From NCBI GenBank assembly GCA_022703505.1, contig JAKLDN010000004.1, positions 124,001-188,000 on the forward strand: a stretch of DNA of 64,000 bases, read 5' to 3'. A model generated the notes under the pieces. It did not search any database. It saw nothing but the letters and a program-made list of their open reading frames with translations, and had not been told where the DNA came from. The first letter of the stretch is position 1. Each line of letters starts with the position of its first letter. Positions 29,349 through 39,483 of this stretch are shown here, piece by piece. The translations under genes were made by a program, and so were the position numbers. This DNA is from Spirochaetota bacterium (GTDB taxonomy: Bacteria; Spirochaetota; Spirochaetia; Treponematales; UBA12059).

Positions 29349-30614
29349 TCAGAACTTTCCCAGGCGGTGGCCGTCCAACAGGGTGGCCCTCTCCCCGGTG
29401 ATCTCCACGCCCTCCCGGCCGGCGAGCTCCGGAAGGAGTGCGTCGGAGGCCCAGACCTCCCCGAGACGCAGGGTGTTCCGTATCCGCAGGATCCGGGCCC
29501 GGAAAAGGTCCCGGACGGAGGCCCCCCGCAGGGCGATCTCCACGACGGCCCGGTCGCTCTCCGCGGACAGGGGTATCTTTCCCCGTTCCAGGAATCCGCT
29601 GGTCACCACGTTCTCGAAGGTAGCCCCGAGGTCGATCCTGTCCCGGAGCCGCCGGGTGATCACGTCCGCCAGGCCCACCCCCAGGGCGTTGCCGTGGGAA
29701 GCCTCGGTCAGGTCGAAGACGGCGACGGAGGAGATCCGGGGCCGATCCGGCTCCCCCTGGTCCCGGACCCGCATGCGGCCGATGACGTTGGAGTCCAGAC
29801 CCACCCCGCTCACATCCTTGCCCATCTCGTCCACCAGGAGCACGTCCAGGTCGTCCACGGGCAGGCGGGGCTGAAGTTCCCGGGCCCGCTCGAGAAGCTC
29901 TCGGTCCGCTTCCGGAAGTCCCTCTCCGGAGACCAGCCGGAGGATCTCGGGTTCTTCCCGGGCGTTCTCCACGATCCCCAGGCCCCCCAGGACCTTTCCG
30001 GTTCCCAGCACGACCCGGGCGGCGGGGAGGATCCGTTCCCGCAGTCCCGCCACGCCGTGGGAGTGGATCTCCAGGGCCTGGGCGTGCTTGCCCAGGCCGA
30101 TGACGGCCATCTTCACGAGGCCGCTCTCGTGGATTCCGTGGAAGTCCGTGTGGGGCTTCACGCGGTTGACCAGGAGGACCCCGTCGGACCCCCAGGCGTC
30201 CCGGGACATGTACACCCGGGTCCCGTCGGGGGCGGCGGGCAGTTCCACGATGTCCAGGGAGGAGACGACGGGCGCCCCGACCCCGGCCTCGGTGATCCCG
30301 TAGCCCGCCAGGACCTCCCTCTGGCCCTCCGCCGTGGCCCCGCCGTGGCTTCCCATGGCCGGGATGACGAAGGGCAGGGCTCCCCGGGCCGAGAGCTCCC
30401 GGACGACCGCCCGGACGATGCGGGCGAGGTTCGCGATCCCCCGGCTCCCCACGGCCACGGCGATCCGTGCGCCCGGCCGGATACCCCGGAACGGGGCGCC
30501 GGGCCGGGAGAACTCCTCGGCCACGGCGGCCTCGATGTCCGGGATGCCGGCCCCCGGGAAGTCCCGTACGACCTTGGTCAGGGAAAGCCCGTCCAGGTTC
30601 GCATACCCGATCAT
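29349..30614 (-). CDS. LarA-like (DUF2088) protein, lactate-racemase superfamily
   Basis: The 421-residue protein shows segments AVAVGSRGIANLARIV and IPAMGSHGGATAEGQ, then NRVKPHTDFHG with several His residues. This is the pattern I associate with the DUF2088/Lar_N superfamily. True LarA is a nickel-pincer lactate racemase. This protein differs from canonical LarA, and no larB, larC or larE maturation gene is in the window, so lactate racemisation should not be assumed. It is cytoplasmic by sequence. It lies 10 bases downstream of... the stop of the membrane hydrolase gene lies just beyond its start on the same strand, so the hydrolase gene is the downstream partner. Confidence 0.5.
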   Translation of the reverse strand: MIGYANLDGLSLTKVVRDFPGAGIPDIEAAVAEEFSRPGAPFRGIRPGARIAVAVGSRGIANLARIVRAVVRELSARGALPFVIPAMGSHGGATAEGQREVLAGYGITEAGVGAPVVSSLDIVELPAAPDGTRVYMSRDAWGSDGVLLVNRVKPHTDFHGIHESGLVKMAVIGLGKHAQALEIHSHGVAGLRERILPAARVVLGTGKVLGGLGIVENAREEPEILRLVSGEGLPEADRELLERARELQPRLPVDDLDVLLVDEMGKDVSGVGLDSNVIGRMRVRDQGEPDRPRISSVAVFDLTEASHGNALGVGLADVITRRLRDRIDLGATFENVVTSGFLERGKIPLSAESDRAVVEIALRGASVRDLFRARILRIRNTLRLGEVWASDALLPELAGREGVEITGERATLLDGHRLGKF

Positions 30615-32712: not shown

Positions 32713-33678
32713 ATGAACTACCTCTTCCACTACTACGCCGTCCGCTGGCTGGCCCGGGAGGCCGGCGTGCCGGAGCCCGAGGCCGAGACTATCGCCCGTT
32801 CCTCCCAGTTCGTGGACGAGGCTGTGCGGCCCCTGCGCGTCGAGACCGGCGGGGTACCCTACGACCTCCGGGTTACCCAGGACTACCTCTTCTGGGACGA
32901 GTCGATCCTCTCGGAGGTCTACCTTCCTTTCCATTTCCTTCCCGGGGACCCCGAGGAGGCGGGCCGGAAGCGAAGGGACGGGGCCCGGAACCCCGGGGCG
33001 GTCACCCCGAACGGAGGGGTCGCCCGGGAGCTCCTGGTGGAAGCCCTGAAGACCGGCGATCCGTACCGGATCGGCATCGCCCTGCACTCCTTCGCGGACG
33101 GGTGGGCCCACCAGAATTTCACGGCCCGGTGGGAGGACTTCAACGCCCTTGACGGCTCCGGCGCCCTGCCCCCGGTGGGGCACCTCCAGGCCCTGACCAA
33201 CCCGGACAACCCGTCCCGTCTCTGGGCGGACCCTCGGCTCCTGCCGGAACTCTACCGGATCGACAACGCGGCCCGCTTCCTGGAGGCGGCGCGGAAGATC
33301 TTCCGCTACCTGCGGACCTGGCTGCGCAAGCCCTTCGGGGACGAGGATCTCCTCCTGCCCAAGCTGGAAGGCCTCCTGCGTTCCCCGGGGGACCGGGAGG
33401 GGGTGGAGGCGGCCTTCATCGTGGACGGGGACCTGCCCAAGTACGAGAAGGGCGCCTGGGCCCGGGAGGCCGGCGTCCTGGACGGCTGGGACCGGGGAGA
33501 GGGCTCCCGGGGCTACGACAAGCTCCTGTGGCTGAAGAGCCAGGCCGAGCGGCGCCTGGGCTCCGGAGTCCGGACCGTCCGCGCCGGCCCGGGATTCTTC
33601 GAATCGGACTTGTACCGCTGGCACGAGGCCGCGGGGGAGCACCGCAGGGCGGCGAAGGCCGCCCTGGCCAACTTCTAA
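32713..33678 (+). CDS. DUF6765-like protein of unknown function
   Basis: The 321-residue protein starts MNYLFHYYAVRWLAREAG, with ARSSQFVDEAV soon after and HSFADGWAHQNF near the middle. I associate this combination with DUF6765, a family without assigned function. The spaced His and Asp residues suggest a metal-dependent, phospholipase-C- or HD-like helical enzyme, which is inference. No signal peptide is evident. The gene is divergent from the membrane hydrolase and convergent with the M14 gene, and its TAA stop lies in a 21-bp tandem repeat. Confidence 0.6.
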   Translation: MNYLFHYYAVRWLAREAGVPEPEAETIARSSQFVDEAVRPLRVETGGVPYDLRVTQDYLFWDESILSEVYLPFHFLPGDPEEAGRKRRDGARNPGAVTPNGGVARELLVEALKTGDPYRIGIALHSFADGWAHQNFTARWEDFNALDGSGALPPVGHLQALTNPDNPSRLWADPRLLPELYRIDNAARFLEAARKIFRYLRTWLRKPFGDEDLLLPKLEGLLRSPGDREGVEAAFIVDGDLPKYEKGAWAREAGVLDGWDRGEGSRGYDKLLWLKSQAERRLGSGVRTVRAGPGFFESDLYRWHEAAGEHRRAAKAALANF

Positions 33679-33728
33679 CGGCAGGGCCGCCATGCCTAAC
33701 GGCAGGGCCGCCATGCCTAACGGCATGG
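33676..33728. repeat. 21-bp tandem repeat spanning two convergent gene ends
   Basis: A 21-base unit beginning TAACGGCAGGGCC occurs at 33676-33696 and 33697-33717, with a partial third copy from 33718. Each unit supplies an in-frame TAA to the plus-strand gene and an in-frame TAG to the minus-strand gene. Confidence 0.85.
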
Positions 33729-34460
33729 CTTGATCCGGCCTTCCTCTCCCGTATCCAACATGCCCAGCACGGCCATGGCCGCCTCCACGGCTGCCCGGTG
33801 AAGCTCCATCCGCCGGGCGGCGGGCACCGTGTCGGGTATCTCCACGATCAGGGCGGGTACATCCAGGAGCCGGGAAGTCTCCGCGGCCAGGCTGCCCCCG
33901 GGGGGACCCCCGGTGTACGAAAACTCCTCCATCCCGGGCCGGTCCAGCATGGCCAAGGCGAGCTCCGCCGCGCGCGGCAGGGCCGGCACAACCAGGAAGG
34001 GGCCGGGACCCTCCGTCCAGGTCCCGTCGCTCTCGTGGAGGTCCAGGACCAGGTCGGGCCGGGCGTTCCGGATCAGACGGAAGAGTTCGAACGCGAGACG
34101 CTCCGCGGGAGCTCCGAGGCGCCGGCCCGGGAAGGCCCGGTTGAGGTCCCCGGCCCCCGGGGCCGTCCGGGTTTCCGCTTCCAATGCCGCCGGATCGGCC
34201 TCCGGCAGGACGAGGAGCCGGCCCCGGAGGGCGGGTCCCCGGTCCGCCAGGGCCCGGGCCGCCCGGACACCGGAGGGCTCGTCCCCGTGGATCCCCGCGA
34301 CCACCAGGAGGGTCGGCCCTACGACCCCGCTCTCCAGGCGGACCGGGGACAGGACGGCGCAGGAGCCGAGGACTGCGCAGGCCGCGGCCGCGACGGCCGC
34401 CCGGGCCGGCCCCGGCGGCCGGGCGGCGCCCGGGCCGCGCCGGAAGCACGGGAAGTTCAC
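33717..34460 (-). CDS. M14-type (AstE/aspartoacylase-like) metallopeptidase, lipoprotein
   Basis: The 247-residue protein starts at a GTG that overlaps the TGA of the upstream gene (GTGA). A lipoprotein signal ends in LGSC near residue 34. The zinc-binding H and E lie in GIHGDEPSG, the third ligand lies in DLHESDG, and DLNRAFPG is the substrate-arginine region. The succinylglutamate desuccinylase/aspartoacylase subfamily removes acyl or amino-acid groups from small amide substrates. It would act in the periplasm. It forms a tandem with the related gene directly upstream. Its 3' end has been duplicated in the 21-bp repeat. Confidence 0.8.
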   Translation of the reverse strand: MNFPCFRRGPGAARPPGPARAAVAAAACAVLGSCAVLSPVRLESGVVGPTLLVVAGIHGDEPSGVRAARALADRGPALRGRLLVLPEADPAALEAETRTAPGAGDLNRAFPGRRLGAPAERLAFELFRLIRNARPDLVLDLHESDGTWTEGPGPFLVVPALPRAAELALAMLDRPGMEEFSYTGGPPGGSLAAETSRLLDVPALIVEIPDTVPAARRMELHRAAVEAAMAVLGMLDTGEEGRIKPCR

Positions 34461-35587
34461 GGCAGAGGTTTCAGGAACGCGCCCAGGCCCTTCTCGAGCA
34501 GGGCCCCGTATTCCGGCACACCGGCGAACTCCAGGGGCCGGTCCGGCCGCTCCGAGGAAAGGGCGAAGGCGAACTCGGAAATGCCGGACAGGTGCCGCCC
34601 CACCCGCTCCTCGATGGGGTGGCCGTTCTCGTCGAAGGGCACGTAGAGCCTGCCCAGGGCCTGGGCCTTCACGTAGTAGGGGTCCCGGCCTTTCAGGACC
34701 AGGGCCTCGTCCGTCCGGCCCCGGAGCCGTCCCTGGGAGGGGTTCGCGGTCTCCATCAGGACCGCCAGGGTATCCGTGGCGTCCCCCAGTTCCCGGTGGG
34801 TCAGGCCCCGCAGGTTCTTCGGAGAGGGCTCCAGGCCGATCTTGATGTCCAGGAACTCCAGGCCCAGGACGACCTGGGAGGCCAGGGGCATGGCCCGCTC
34901 GTGGGCCACGATGGCGTTGATCACCGGGTACTCCGGGGAGGCCTCGTGGAGGTCCACGCTGATGTCGATCTTCTCCGCCCGGATCAGGTTCGCGATGCCC
35001 AGGCAGACCCGCTCGGTCAGGGTCCCGTCCGCCCGGCCCGGGTAACCTCGGTTCAGGTTCCGGGTCTCGTTGCCCGAGAGGGTCTGGCCGCTGGCGGCAT
35101 GGACGTAGACGTCCGGGTCCGGCCACTGGTGCACGGGGTTCGTGGCCCGGGACCCGTACCGGAAGGTCCGCACGGACCCGCCGGGCAGGGCGACGGAGTA
35201 CCTCTCGGGAGCCCCCTCCTGGGGGTCGTTGTGGGTGAACCCCGAGGCGTTGGCCCGGGGGATCACGTACAGGGTCCCCGCCGAAACCAAGGCGTTCTCG
35301 ATGAGCAGGACCGCGGACAGGAAGGAGGAGGGCTCGTTCGGGTGGGTGCCCCCCAGGACGAGCATGGAGGAACCCGGAGAGGCTCCCCGGAACACGTAGA
35401 CCTCCGTGTCCCCGGGAGAGCCGGCCAGGTCCGGCAGCCATTCGGAGAGCATGCGGACCTCGGTGACGCCCGGACCCCGGACGATGGGCTCGGGCTTACG
35501 GTGGTCCAGGAAGCGGATCGAGGCGGCCGCGGCGGCGGCCAAAGCCAGGAGGGTGACCGCGAGGGCGGTCGCATGGTGTCGTTTCAC
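34457..35587 (-). CDS. M14/AstE-type zinc carboxypeptidase-like protein, secreted
   Basis: The 376-residue protein has an N-terminal signal or anchor (about 1-25, Ala/Leu-rich). The catalytic signature is spread over GGTHPNEPSS (His and Glu zinc ligands), ETRNLNRGYPG and DLHEASPEY (third zinc ligand). A Glu near MLE/METANPSQ may be the general base. It is probably periplasmic and hydrolyses a peptide or acyl-amino acid. It sits between the small membrane protein and a second, shorter M14 protein in one operon. Confidence 0.8.
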   Translation of the reverse strand: MKRHHATALAVTLLALAAAAAASIRFLDHRKPEPIVRGPGVTEVRMLSEWLPDLAGSPGDTEVYVFRGASPGSSMLVLGGTHPNEPSSFLSAVLLIENALVSAGTLYVIPRANASGFTHNDPQEGAPERYSVALPGGSVRTFRYGSRATNPVHQWPDPDVYVHAASGQTLSGNETRNLNRGYPGRADGTLTERVCLGIANLIRAEKIDISVDLHEASPEYPVINAIVAHERAMPLASQVVLGLEFLDIKIGLEPSPKNLRGLTHRELGDATDTLAVLMETANPSQGRLRGRTDEALVLKGRDPYYVKAQALGRLYVPFDENGHPIEERVGRHLSGISEFAFALSSERPDRPLEFAGVPEYGALLEKGLGAFLKPLP

Positions 35588-35596
35588 GGCATTCCC

Positions 35597-35740
35597 CTAC
35601 TTAATCAGGAGGACCCGGAGCAGGAGGGGAATCGCGACCATGGCCGCGGTGGCCTGCTTCCGCCAGTCCTTCTCGGTCCAGAGGTTCCACGCGGTCAGTC
35701 CCAGGACGGATGCCGCGATCGCCAGGTACAGGTATGTCAT
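35597..35740 (-). CDS. Small membrane protein, 47 residues
   Basis: An ATG at 35740 with AGGAG upstream opens a 47-codon frame, MTYLYLAIAASVLGLTAWN at the start and ending IPLLLRVLLIK. It has two hydrophobic segments (about 3-20 and 31-46) around a charged middle (TEKDWRKQ). It lies 16 bases after the permease gene and 9 bases before the metallopeptidase gene, so it is very likely translated. It could be an accessory subunit of the permease; DctQ proteins of TRAP systems are much larger, so it is not a normal DctQ. Confidence 0.65.
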   Translation of the reverse strand: MTYLYLAIAASVLGLTAWNLWTEKDWRKQATAAMVAIPLLLRVLLIK

Positions 35741-35756
35741 CTCTTCGCTCCTGTCG

Positions 35757-37025
35757 TCAGTAGAGAGCCCGGATCTGCTTGGAGAACACGATGAACGCCA
35801 GCGCCCAGCCGATGATGACCAGGGAGGGGACGACCAGCTTGACCAGGACCCGGGAATACTTCGATTCCCCCACCACCTGGGCCGCGAAGATGGCGGACAG
35901 GGCCGTGGGGGGCATGAAGTCCCCCAGGGAGGCGATGAGGGAGAGGGCCGCGGCGGTCACGATCTGATCCCGGCCCAGGAGGGCCAGGAGGAAGGGAACC
36001 CCCAGGACGCTGGAGGCTCCGAAGGCCGATACCGCCCCGAAGAGGGGTATGGACACGGCGATGGCCGCGTAGAGCAGGGCCGGGGGCACCGAGAGGGCGC
36101 TGACCACCACGAAACCCCGGACCCCGGTCAGGGTCATCACCTGGATGAACATCCCCACGCCGGCCAGGATGCCCAGGACCGGCAGGGCGTCGTTTACCGC
36201 GGCCTTGGAGGCCGAAAGGATGTTGAAGCGCTTTCCGACCACGAGCCCCAGGGCGGCTCCGATCAGGAAGACCACGGGAAGCCCCATTCCGAAGACCTGC
36301 GGCAGGGTCTTTCCCAGGACCATCAGGACGGCGACGACCAGGATGGGCAGGAAGAGGCGGATGCCGTATTTCTTGTACGTCTCCAGGTCCAGCTTGGCGG
36401 CCAGGACCTCCCACTCCACGACCTTGACGTGGGGAAGCCCGAACCAGAGGGAGAACAGGACGGCCAAGGGGAAGGTCAGGAGGGCCAGGGGAACCTCGAA
36501 GCCCACGTAGGGCATGTCGATGCCCCCGCCTATGATCATGGCGGGGATGTTCACCGGGGGAGCGATCATCCCCAGGATGCCCGCCATGGCTATGAAGGCC
36601 CCCGTCACGGGGGCGGGCAGACCCAGGAGGATCAGGACCGGGGCGACCACGGCCCCCGCGGTCAGGACCGAGGCGCTGGAACTGCCCGTGATCATCCCCG
36701 GGAACATGGCCACCAGCATGAGCAGGGGCAGGAGGAGGGCCGGGACGGTCCGGAAGCGCCGGAGGATCACGGCGTTCAGGGCTTCCAGGGCCCCGGATTC
36801 CTGGACGGTCCGCATGAAGACCATGGCCGTGGCGATGACCAGGATGGTGTCCACGTACCCGAAGGTCCCCTCCACCAGGTGGCGGACGGGCAGGCCGTTC
36901 CCGGAGACCAGGAGGCCCGCGCAGGCGGCCAGGAGCATGGACAGGGAGACCGGGAGCTTCGCGGCGAAACAGCCCGCCGCGAAGACCCCGACCATGGCTA
37001 GGAATATGACCAGTTCGAAGGGCAC
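35757..37025 (-). CDS. DctM-like (TRAP large subunit) permease
   Basis: The 422-residue protein has about 11-12 membrane spans. MITGSSSASVLTAGAVVAPVL, GMIAPPVNIPAMIIGG and the mirrored second-half segment SLGDFMPPTALSAI match the inverted-repeat core of DctM and related ion-transporter superfamily permeases. It would carry a small anion, perhaps an amino acid or organic acid, with Na+ or H+. No DctP binding protein or standard DctQ is encoded nearby. Its neighbours are a secreted DUF6305-like protein and the 47-residue membrane protein. An SLC13-like or other IT-superfamily identity is also possible. Confidence 0.75.
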   Translation of the reverse strand: MPFELVIFLAMVGVFAAGCFAAKLPVSLSMLLAACAGLLVSGNGLPVRHLVEGTFGYVDTILVIATAMVFMRTVQESGALEALNAVILRRFRTVPALLLPLLMLVAMFPGMITGSSSASVLTAGAVVAPVLILLGLPAPVTGAFIAMAGILGMIAPPVNIPAMIIGGGIDMPYVGFEVPLALLTFPLAVLFSLWFGLPHVKVVEWEVLAAKLDLETYKKYGIRLFLPILVVAVLMVLGKTLPQVFGMGLPVVFLIGAALGLVVGKRFNILSASKAAVNDALPVLGILAGVGMFIQVMTLTGVRGFVVVSALSVPPALLYAAIAVSIPLFGAVSAFGASSVLGVPFLLALLGRDQIVTAAALSLIASLGDFMPPTALSAIFAAQVVGESKYSRVLVKLVVPSLVIIGWALAFIVFSKQIRALY

Positions 37026-37034
37026 GGCGTCCCC

Positions 37035-37586
37035 CTACTTGAACGCGGCGGCCAGGGGCACCCCCGCGGCGGTGATCTTGTCCACCTTGACCAGGGGAAT
37101 CTTGGCCTGGGAGGCGAGCTTGGTAAAGAGGCCGTCCTTGTCCGCGTCCTCCACCACGATGGCGTAGTCCGAGACCGGGACGCAGAGGCTGATGAAGGCG
37201 TCCGAGAGGGTGCCCCGCCGGGCCTCGCCGCCCACGTGGATCGCGATGATCTTCATGCCGAGCTCCCGGGCCCGCTTGATCAGGGCCTTGGCCCGGTCGA
37301 TCTCCGCCTCGGTGCTGATGCCCGCGGCTCCCAGGCCCTTGGAGCTGCCGCCCACGGCCAGGACCAGGGTCTTGGCGCCCCCGGGGAGCTTGGCGGCGGT
37401 GACCAGGGGATCCGCGGTGTGGTCCACCTTCCCGCGGGAAAGGAGGACCTTGACCATCTCGATGTCGGCGCTTTGGCCGACGGAGGTCAGGAGGGCGGGC
37501 TTTTCCGCGAAGGCCGCGGGAGCCTGGGCGGACAGGGCCGCCGCGGCGGCCAAAAGGACGAATACGCTGAGGATTGCACGACGCAT
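37035..37586 (-). CDS. DUF6305-like secreted protein
   Basis: The 183-residue protein has a signal peptide (about 1-22, ending ALSAQA). The mature part begins EKPALLTSVGQSADIEMVKVL and contains LVLAVGGSSKGLGAAG and IIAIHVGGEARRG. This matches my recollection of DUF6305, which has no known function. The alternation of strands and Gly loops suggests a Rossmann-like alpha/beta fold in the periplasm. It lies between the gamma-glutamyltransferase and permease genes, 10 bases from the latter, and may act as a ligand-binding partner; that is inference. Confidence 0.65.
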   Translation of the reverse strand: MRRAILSVFVLLAAAAALSAQAPAAFAEKPALLTSVGQSADIEMVKVLLSRGKVDHTADPLVTAAKLPGGAKTLVLAVGGSSKGLGAAGISTEAEIDRAKALIKRARELGMKIIAIHVGGEARRGTLSDAFISLCVPVSDYAIVVEDADKDGLFTKLASQAKIPLVKVDKITAAGVPLAAAFK

Positions 37587-37703
37587 AGAAACTCCTGGAA
37601 GCGGACGGGCCGCCGGTTCCTCCCCGGGGGAAGGTCCGGCGGCCGTTGCGAAGCGGCGGAGGCGGGCCCGGCGGGGTACGCCGGGTCGTCCGCCGCGTAT
37701 GGA

Positions 37704-39392
37704 TCAGAACGCCGCGGCCTGGCCGTCCCGCCGGGGGTCGGCGCCGCCGTAGAGGACCTTGGCCTTGCGGTCGAAGAGCACCGCGTGCACGCCGCCGAAG
37801 TAGGCGTCCCAGTCGGCCCGGACGTTCACGTTATGCCCCAGGGCCTCGAGGCCCTTGAGGGTGTTGATGGAAGCCCGTCCCTCGAGCTGGACCTGGCCGG
37901 AGGCCATGGCGAAGACCCGGGGGGCCATGATGGAATCCTGGACGGACATCCTGTGGTCGATCACGTTGGAGATGACCTGGGCCACCGCCGCGATGATCCG
38001 GGTGGCTCCGGGGGAGCCCACGGTCATGAAGGGCTGACCGTCGGGGTCCAGGACCAGGGTGGGGGTCATGGAGGACAGGGGCCGCTTTCCGGGCTCCACG
38101 GACTGGACGTGGCCGGGCTTCAGGGCGAAGTCGTCCATGTGGTCGTTCAGGATGAATCCCGTGCCGGGGACCGTCACGCCGGAGCCGAAGAAGTAGTTGA
38201 TGCTCTTGGTGACCGCCACCATGTTCCCGTCCTTGTCCATGACGGAGAAGTGGGTGGTGGAGCCGCTCTCGAACTTGGTCGGATCATCGGCGGTGGCGGA
38301 GCCCATGGCCTTGGCCATGTCGATCTTGGCGGCCAGGACCTTTGCGTAGTCCTTGTTCGCCAGGCCCTTGAGGGGCACCTTCACGAAGTCGGCGTCGGCC
38401 ATGTACTTGCCGCGGTCCGCGAAAGCCAGGCGCAGGGCTTCGATCCACGCGTGGGTGGTGGCGGGGGTGCCGGGCCCCATCTTGGCGATGTCCATGTTCT
38501 CCAGGATGTTGAGGATCTGGATCACGTGGGTTCCGCCGGAGCTGGCGGGGGGCACGGAGACGATCGTGTATCCGCGGTAGGTGCCCGTGACGGGCTTGCG
38601 GATCTTCACCTGGTAGTTGGCCAGGTCCGCCGCGGTCAGGATGCCGCCCGCGTCCCGGGCGGCCTTGGCGATCCGCTCGGCCATCTCGCCCTTGTAGATC
38701 GCGTCCTTCCCGTCCTTGGCGATGGCCCGGAGGGTGGCGGCCAGGTCCGGATTCTTGATGGTCTCCCCGAGCTCGTAAGGGAGTCCGTCCTTGGTGTAGA
38801 TCTTGGCCGTGGCGGGGTACTTGTTGATCTTGCCCAACTCGGACTGGATGATCGAGGCCAGGTTGACGGTAACGGGAATGCCCTTCTCCGCCCACTCGAC
38901 GGCGGGGGCCAGGACCTTCTCCCGGTTCATCTTCTTGGAACCGTAGTTCTCCAGGGCGTACAAAAGTCCTGCGACCTCGCCGGGAACTCCGACGGACAGG
39001 CCGCCCACGACGCTGGCGTTGTCGATGACCTTGCCGTCCTCCCCGAACTTGAACATGTCCGGTTTGGCCGCCGCGGGGGCGGTCTCCCGGAAATCGATCA
39101 CCACGGCTTCCTTCATGTTCGCCATCTTGATGACCATGAATCCGCCGCCGCCGATACCGGAGGCGTTGGGTTCCAGGACACCCAGGGCGAAGGCGGTGGC
39201 GATGGCCGCGTCCACGGCGTTCCCGCCCTTCTTGAGGATGTCGATGCCCACCTGGGACGCCTCGGGCTTGGCGGCCGCGACGACGCCCTTGGCGCCCTGG
39301 GCCGCCCGGCCGTACAGGTTGACCGGGGTCTGGGCCGCGATCAGGGCAGCGGCGAAGGCGACCAACACGAATACCGAGAACAACTTTTTCAC
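37704..39392 (-). CDS. ggt: Gamma-glutamyltransferase (periplasmic)
   Basis: The 562-residue protein has a signal peptide (MKKLFSVFVLVAFAAALIAA). It matures by self-cleavage before a Thr, here Thr379 in GSTTHFSVMD. Other signatures are GGNAVDAAIATAFALGV, GGGGFMVI, VPGEVAGL and RPLSSMTPTLV. It releases glutamate from glutathione and other gamma-glutamyl compounds in the periplasm. It is the first gene of a six-gene run that ends with two M14 enzymes, which suggests the products are hydrolysed and imported together. Confidence 0.93.
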   Translation of the reverse strand: MKKLFSVFVLVAFAAALIAAQTPVNLYGRAAQGAKGVVAAAKPEASQVGIDILKKGGNAVDAAIATAFALGVLEPNASGIGGGGFMVIKMANMKEAVVIDFRETAPAAAKPDMFKFGEDGKVIDNASVVGGLSVGVPGEVAGLLYALENYGSKKMNREKVLAPAVEWAEKGIPVTVNLASIIQSELGKINKYPATAKIYTKDGLPYELGETIKNPDLAATLRAIAKDGKDAIYKGEMAERIAKAARDAGGILTAADLANYQVKIRKPVTGTYRGYTIVSVPPASSGGTHVIQILNILENMDIAKMGPGTPATTHAWIEALRLAFADRGKYMADADFVKVPLKGLANKDYAKVLAAKIDMAKAMGSATADDPTKFESGSTTHFSVMDKDGNMVAVTKSINYFFGSGVTVPGTGFILNDHMDDFALKPGHVQSVEPGKRPLSSMTPTLVLDPDGQPFMTVGSPGATRIIAAVAQVISNVIDHRMSVQDSIMAPRVFAMASGQVQLEGRASINTLKGLEALGHNVNVRADWDAYFGGVHAVLFDRKAKVLYGGADPRRDGQAAAF

Positions 39393-39455
39393 AGGATCCT
39401 CCCTTTGTTTCTCTGGATAGAAACTTTCCAGCGTTTCTTACCGAAACTAATTAAA

Positions 39456-39483
39456 TATTTACCGATTGATCCGAGCTTGTCAA
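39456..39483 (-). promoter_or_regulatory. Promoter of the ggt operon
   Basis: On the minus strand TTGACA (39483-39478) and TAAATA (39461-39456) are separated by 16 bases, about 65 bases before the ggt ATG, in an unusually AT-rich stretch. Confidence 0.6.

What the first reader, a model, noticed from the sequence alone, without database searches (positions are those of the whole stretch)
33717..39392. Operon of Ggt, DUF6305, DctM-like permease, 47-residue membrane protein and two M14 enzymes
Six genes on one strand with short gaps or overlaps combine periplasmic release of glutamate, two secreted AstE/aspartoacylase-like enzymes and a permease without the usual DctP and DctQ partners. The secreted DUF6305-like protein and the tiny membrane protein may replace them. 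The likely cargo is glutamate, aspartate or an acylated amino acid. It would be an unorthodox scavenging and transport system.
Basis: partly seen in the sequence, partly recalled or inferred. Interest (0 to 1): 0.65.

Follow-up and report, generated by a model that had tools for sequence, protein, structure and literature searches.

The report
Polyglutamate turnover operon with unusual transporter
Six neighbouring genes form a cassette, conserved across at least eight bacterial phyla, that almost always shares its genome with the genes that make the polymer poly-gamma-glutamate; it most likely cuts that polymer up outside the cell and carries the pieces back in through a transporter of unfamiliar make-up.

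Summary
The six genes are real, co-directional and almost gapless. The DUF6305 call is correct. The linkage is strongly conserved: in 40 related loci with at least 6 kb on both sides, the permease and the ~47-residue protein occur in 40, DUF6305 and GGT in 39. pgsB-pgsC-pgsW lie beside it in 25 of those 40 loci. Of 34 genomes without them in the fetched locus, 33 carry pgsW elsewhere. The window's own genome has pgsBCW on another contig. The cassette GGTs lack the lid loop, as Bacillus GGTs that degrade PGA do. The M14 enzymes keep their zinc and catalytic residues. The permease has the TRAP-M fold but no DctP or DctQ; all 11 DctP and 11 DctQ in the genome belong to canonical TRAP loci. Best explanation: secreted enzymes depolymerise PGA and the permease, with DUF6305 and the microprotein, imports the glutamate or gamma-glutamyl products. 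The PGA link is well supported; direction, cargo and the roles of DUF6305 and the microprotein are inferred. This is a new variant of a known kind, with three uncharacterised conserved components.

The parts
37704..39392 (-). Gamma-glutamyltransferase (GGT), signal peptide, lid-loop-negative type
   Evidence: PF01019 576 bits, TIGR00066 536 bits; 14 residues between MDDF and RPLSSM against 24 in E. coli GGT
37035..37586 (-). DUF6305 exported protein (Sec signal peptide; lipoprotein in many Gram-positive relatives)
   Evidence: PF19823 175 bits; N-termini of 66 relatives; AlphaFold2 model pLDDT 94.6, Rossmann-like
35757..37025 (-). TRAP-M-like ion-transporter-superfamily permease without DctQ/DctP
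   Evidence: PF06808 37 bits; AlphaFold2 model pLDDT 90, TM 0.69 to IseQM and SiaQM M domains
35597..35740 (-). 47-aa membrane microprotein with two hydrophobic segments, unnamed family
   Evidence: no Pfam/NCBIfam hit; same place in 75 of 78 loci, dN/dS about 0.09
34457..35587 (-). M14a: AstE/AspA-like zinc hydrolase with N-terminal signal or anchor
   Evidence: HxxE, NxNR, DxHE and catalytic Glu invariant or nearly so in 91 relatives
33717..34460 (-). M14b: AstE/AspA-like zinc hydrolase, predicted lipoprotein
   Evidence: PF24827 76 bits; lipobox VLGSC and motifs GIHGDE, DLNR, DLHE in the sequence; M14a-M14b profile match E 2e-43
39454..39483 (-). Sigma70-like promoter site upstream of the operon (TTGACA-18-AATATT)
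   Evidence: 1 found against 0.3 expected; a consensus match only

Best explanation
The operon is the turnover-and-uptake half of a poly-gamma-glutamate system. PgsB/PgsC/PgsW, encoded next to it in most relatives and on another contig in this genome, make and export a gamma-linked glutamate polymer. The secreted lid-less GGT trims it from the amino end. The two AstE-like zinc enzymes cut N-(gamma-glutamyl)-glutamate bonds, probably from the carboxyl end. The DctM-like permease, helped by the 47-residue membrane protein and the exported DUF6305 protein, brings glutamate or short gamma-glutamyl oligomers back into the cell by ion-coupled elevator transport. Shown by computation: gene identities, conserved linkage, near-obligate co-occurrence with pgsW, permease fold, active-site residues, lid-less GGT. 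Inferred: the polymer's identity in this organism, transport direction, cargo, and that DUF6305 and the microprotein work with the permease.
For: Of 40 related loci with at least 6 kb on each side, the permease and the microprotein occur in 40, DUF6305 and GGT in 39, PgsBCW in 25. Of 34 genomes with the cassette but no pgs genes in the fetched locus, 33 have TIGR04332 (PgsW) elsewhere. In 296 Spirochaetota genomes, the permease subfamily occurs in the same five genomes as strong M14a hits; four of these have DUF6305 and PgsW, against 13 of 296 with PgsW (p about 1e-5). G000 has PgsB 263 bits (cut-off 223) and PgsW 310 bits (cut-off 100). PgsW occurs without the cassette in nine Spirochaetota genomes; in the three of these examined, pgsBCW has no cassette gene beside it. 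So the cassette acts on the product rather than being needed for synthesis. Cassette GGTs lack the lid loop in 79 of 79 cases; lid-less GGTs accept PGA and a grafted lid favours glutamine over PGA (PMC8062742, citing Calvio 2018). The phage PGA hydrolase PghP is a zinc enzyme related to carboxypeptidase A (PMC4497714). Fusobacterium nucleatum makes PGA (Candela 2009, cited in PMC3815933), and a locus of another Fusobacterium species carries the cassette with pgsBCW (L039).
Against: No polymer, activity or transport was measured here. The window's pgsBCW is unlinked and only about 30-45% identical to the linked sets, so it is not a simply relocated ortholog. PgsC of G000 scores below its curated cut-off (81 against 96). 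The DUF6305 model is not two-lobed like a substrate-binding protein. One genome (L094, a 1.4-Mb MAG) has the cassette without detected PgsW, and G174 has permease and M14a without PgsW or DUF6305; both are draft MAGs.
Confidence: 0.57

Rival explanations
1. The permease, microprotein and DUF6305 form the export route for the polymer, replacing PgsA/CapA, while GGT and M14 enzymes trim or attach it.
For: No CapA/PgsA-like family recurs in the cassette loci, and the PGA_cap proteins of G000 are not near pgsB. The permease-microprotein pair sits close to pgsB in many operons.
Against: Nine Spirochaetota genomes have PgsW but lack DUF6305, M14a and the permease, and pgsBCW stands alone in the three loci examined. 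The structural relatives of the permease carry small solutes, not long polymers.
Confidence: 0.13
2. The system scavenges foreign gamma-glutamyl peptides or N-acyl amino acids; the link to pgsBCW is regulatory or ecological.
For: GGT and AstE-like enzymes can act on glutathione-like or N-acylated substrates in general (established family knowledge).
Against: 33 of 34 cassette genomes without pgs in the fetched locus still have PgsW, and the lid-less GGT type in 79 of 79 points to a polymer. Pure scavengers should occur without a polymer synthase.
Confidence: 0.12
3. The GGT works like CapD, transferring PGA onto the cell envelope, and the M14 enzymes set chain length; the permease recycles only the released glutamate or supplies glutamate for synthesis.
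For: CapD is a GGT relative that anchors PGA to peptidoglycan and also depolymerises it (PMC8062742); the cassette GGT matches CapD (3g9k, E 9e-47) among solved structures.
Against: The GGT is far closer to ordinary GGTs (E 2e-117) than to CapD. Two or three separate hydrolases suggest degradation rather than anchoring.
Confidence: 0.15

Closest known systems
Bacillus PgsBCA/CapBCA(D,E) poly-gamma-glutamate systems
   Same: PgsB and PgsC synthase genes, a lid-less GGT/CapD-type enzyme, and a very small protein linked to the operon (PgsE/CapE in Bacillus; similarity in size only)
   Different: PgsW (TIGR04332) in place of PgsA in the operon; a dedicated permease, DUF6305 and AstE-like enzymes, none of which is part of the Bacillus operons
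TRAP transporters (DctPQM; e.g. SiaPQM, IseQM)
   Same: Permease has the DctM/IT fold (TM 0.69 to IseQM and SiaQM; PF06808 above cut-off)
   Different: No DctQ and no DctP; a two-segment 47-aa protein and a single-domain Rossmann-like exported protein instead; only about 20% identity to canonical DctM
Tripartite tricarboxylate transporters (TctABC)
   Same: Three-part layout with a large permease, a small membrane protein and an exported protein
   Different: No Pfam match to TctA, TctB or TctC in these proteins
AstE/AspA/DoeB zinc deacylases (M14 family)
   Same: HxxE, NxNR, DxHE and catalytic Glu motifs
   Different: Predicted exported rather than cytoplasmic; below the curated cut-offs of the named enzymes; tied to pgs genes
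NCBIfam TIGR04332 'poly-gamma-glutamate system protein'
   Same: This curated name shows that a PgsBC-associated system was already recognised; G000 has a member at 310 bits
   Different: The family name says nothing about the permease, microprotein, DUF6305 or M14 parts; no paper in the searched library mentions DUF6305, and none of the listed papers mentions TIGR04332

Membership tests
TRAP transporter (DctPQM) | DctM-type permease (family profile and fold) | tested here: met
   PF06808 37 bits against cut-off 23.8; fold match to IseQM/SiaQM TM 0.69; hhalign to canonical DctM E 1e-9
TRAP transporter (DctPQM) | DctQ partner (4-helix small subunit) | tested here: not met
   No DctQ at the locus; all 11 DctQ hits in the genome pair with canonical DctM
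TRAP transporter (DctPQM) | DctP or TAXI solute-binding protein | tested here: not met
   No DctP at the locus; 11 DctP hits all beside canonical DctM; DUF6305 has no DctP/TAXI Pfam match. Whether DUF6305 works as a binding protein was not tested.
Periplasmic substrate-binding protein fold | Two-lobed hinge-bending fold | tested here: inconclusive
   DUF6305 model is one 155-residue Rossmann-like domain; best structural matches are unspecific
Poly-gamma-glutamate synthesis/turnover system | PgsB and PgsC present | tested here: met
   In G000: PgsB 263 bits over cut-off 223; PgsC 81 bits, below its cut-off of 96 but in the pgsB-pgsC-pgsW order
Poly-gamma-glutamate synthesis/turnover system | PgsA/CapA encoded with pgsBC | tested here: not met
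   PgsW occupies that place; PGA_cap genes of G000 are elsewhere; no CapA-like family recurs in the 80 loci
Poly-gamma-glutamate synthesis/turnover system | Polymer of gamma-linked glutamate is produced | not testable with these tools
   Needs chemistry; known for Fusobacterium nucleatum (cited in PMC3815933), not for this organism
PGA-degrading (lid-loop-negative) GGT | GGT with autoprocessing Thr and no lid loop | tested here: met
   Thr380 of the window protein at the autoprocessing site; T in 74, S in 5, gap in 2 of 81 at that column; loop 12-18 residues in 79 of 79 against 24 in E. coli
M14 AstE/AspA-type zinc hydrolase | Zinc ligands HxxE...H and catalytic Glu | tested here: met
   Invariant in 91 of 91 M14a proteins

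The most novel reading that the evidence does not exclude
A distinct class of secondary transporter: a DctM-type elevator permease that works with a 47-residue two-helix subunit instead of DctQ and with a single-domain Rossmann-like exported (lipo)protein, DUF6305, instead of a two-lobed binding protein, dedicated to gamma-glutamyl products of the cell's own poly-gamma-glutamate.
Probability: 0.33. Interest if true: 0.8.

Novelty: new variant of a known kind. Interest (0 to 1): 0.6.

Why it matters
It gives a testable role to three conserved but uncharacterised protein families (DUF6305, a permease subfamily and an unnamed ~47-aa membrane protein). It suggests that anaerobes from at least eight phyla, gut and oral bacteria among them, make and recycle poly-gamma-glutamate, a polymer known mainly from Bacillus. 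It also offers a natural case for what a TRAP-M-like permease can do without DctQ and DctP.

Tried and rejected
1) A hidden dctP/dctQ pair elsewhere: rejected, all pair with canonical DctM genes. 2) Chance neighbourhood or spurious 47-aa ORF: rejected by conservation of place, length and codon pattern. 3) Relocation of the linked pgsBCW to another contig in this genome: not supported, the G000 copies are divergent. 4) DUF6305 as a relative of PgsW: no profile similarity. 5) Identifying DUF6305 by fold: only generic Rossmann-like matches (ribokinase-like, SGNH, flavodoxin-like; Z about 9, TM at most 0.5), so no function can be read from it; a two-lobed binding protein was not among the rows, which does not exclude one. 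6) PDB relatives by sequence: none for DUF6305, a weak one for the permease (9pym, E 2e-4). 7) Literature on DUF6305 or this gene set: none found in the open-access library. 8) A survey of Clostridia could not be run, because a locus was not accepted as the centre of a class survey.
Full report
OBSERVATION. All six genes are present on the minus strand at the stated coordinates. GGT is unambiguous (PF01019 576 bits). DUF6305 is a true Pfam match (PF19823, 175 bits). The permease is only a distant DctM (37 bits), far from the 14 canonical DctM genes of the same genome (219-406 bits). The 47-residue ORF matches no family. M14a and M14b are AstE/AspA-like. Intergenic distances run from 117 bp down to a 4-bp overlap, so one transcript is likely; a sigma70-like site lies just upstream of GGT.

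CONSERVED LINKAGE. A scan of genome contigs with the M14a alignment returned 80 loci from Spirochaetota, Bacillota, Fusobacteriota, Atribacterota, Acidobacteriota, Verrucomicrobiota, Synergistota, Bipolaricaulota and a few proteobacterial MAGs. The scan kept the 80 best of 485 relatives, so it is biased to close relatives of M14a. The microprotein lies directly upstream of M14a in 75 of 78 testable loci, and the permease directly upstream of it in 67 of 69. In 40 loci with at least 6 kb on both sides the permease and microprotein occur in 40, DUF6305 and GGT in 39, and PgsBCW in 25. Permease-microprotein-M14a units are duplicated in tandem in L050, L073 and L099. The only other family that recurs in more than seven loci is a membrane histidine kinase with its response regulator (both in 27 loci).

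THE LINK TO POLY-GAMMA-GLUTAMATE. PgsB and PgsC are the PGA synthase core; PgsW is NCBI's 'poly-gamma-glutamate system protein'. Of 34 cassette genomes without pgs genes in the fetched locus, 33 have PgsW elsewhere. The window's genome carries one pgsB-pgsC-pgsW operon on contig C10, with a GltP-like glutamate symporter and a chemoreceptor gene beside it. In 296 Spirochaetota genomes, the permease subfamily (E <= 1e-40) occurs in exactly the five genomes with strong M14a hits; four of them have DUF6305 and PgsW, while PgsW occurs in only 13 of 296 (p about 1e-5). The fifth genome's locus sits on a 3.9-kb contig. Nine genomes have PgsW without the cassette; in the three examined, pgsBCW stands without any cassette gene beside it. 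The dependence is therefore one-way: the cassette goes with PgsBCW, PgsBCW does not need the cassette. This is what one expects of genes that act on the product.

ENZYMES. All 79 measurable cassette GGTs lack the lid loop (12-18 residues between the MDDF and RPLSSM motifs, against 24 in E. coli). A review states that lid-less GGTs have an open cleft that accepts PGA and that grafting a lid onto the B. subtilis enzyme favours glutamine over bulky PGA; it lists Gram-negative GGTs as lid-positive (PMC8062742). A lid-less GGT in spirochaetes is thus a specific fit. M14a keeps its zinc ligands and catalytic glutamate in 91 of 91 relatives, and an NxNR motif that in carboxypeptidase A binds the terminal carboxylate (own knowledge). 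Chemically, the carboxyl end of PGA is an N-acyl-glutamate with an acidic acyl group, close to the natural substrates of AstE (own inference). The phage PGA hydrolase PghP is also a zinc enzyme related to carboxypeptidase A (PMC4497714). In locus L019 a C69-type dipeptidase stands in the place of GGT.

TRANSPORT PARTS. The permease model (pLDDT 90) matches the M domain of TRAP transporters and other ion-transporter-superfamily members (IseQM and SiaQM TM 0.69; MleN; INDY). DUF6305 is exported in nearly all relatives with a complete N-terminus: Sec signals in diderms, lipoboxes in many Gram-positives. Its model (pLDDT 94.6) is a single Rossmann-like domain without a specific structural relative. 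Its invariant and near-invariant residues (GQSAD, GGSSKGLGAAG, HxGGExRRG..SD, D151) sit in the loops after successive beta strands, the usual ligand site of such folds. Three lipoproteins carry three DUF6305 domains each. The microprotein has two hydrophobic segments separated by a charged loop and a conserved 'IPLxLRxLxIK' end. There is no orphan DctP or DctQ in the genome.

MECHANISM. The best-supported account is turnover and re-uptake of self-made PGA. B. subtilis degrades its PGA with GGT as a nitrogen source in starvation (PMC8062742), so the logic is known; the transporter would be the new part. Direction and cargo are inferred. An export role is less likely because PgsBCW occurs without the permease. 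Pure scavenging of foreign peptides is less likely because of the near-obligate link to PgsW.

NOVELTY. The PGA-synthase association is implicit in the name of TIGR04332, and F. nucleatum is a known PGA producer (cited in PMC3815933). No paper in the searched library names DUF6305, and I found no description of the permease-microprotein-DUF6305 unit. Most subscription papers are outside that library. I rate it a new variant of a known kind.

Noticed in passing
L101:7606-10319 (G000 contig C10): The window genome's pgsBCW operon is divergent (about 30-45% identity to all linked sets) and lies beside a GltP-like symporter and a chemoreceptor gene.
   Followed up: partly
L089, L092, L093: Lipoproteins with three tandem DUF6305 domains.
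   Followed up: partly
L019:3372-5012: A C69-family dipeptidase stands in the cassette where GGT usually is.
   Followed up: partly
27 loci, e.g. L029:14760-16761: A membrane histidine kinase and response regulator pair recurs next to the cassette and probably regulates it.
   Followed up: partly
L132, L133, L134: pgsB-pgsC-pgsW without any cassette gene beside it in distant Spirochaetota; what it makes there is unclear.
   Followed up: partly
window 33675-33729: 21-bp tandem repeat (CTAACGGCAGGGCCGCCATGC) between the convergent ends of M14b and the plus-strand gene ending at 33678.
   Followed up: no
window 29349-30614 (-): Nickel-pincer-cofactor isomerase, group 22 (NF052515, 472 bits), LarA-like, downstream on the same strand.
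   Followed up: no
L058, L066, L071, L073, L092, L093, L096: Two GGT-family genes in tandem; some lack the usual substrate-binding residues, suggesting divergent roles.
   Followed up: no
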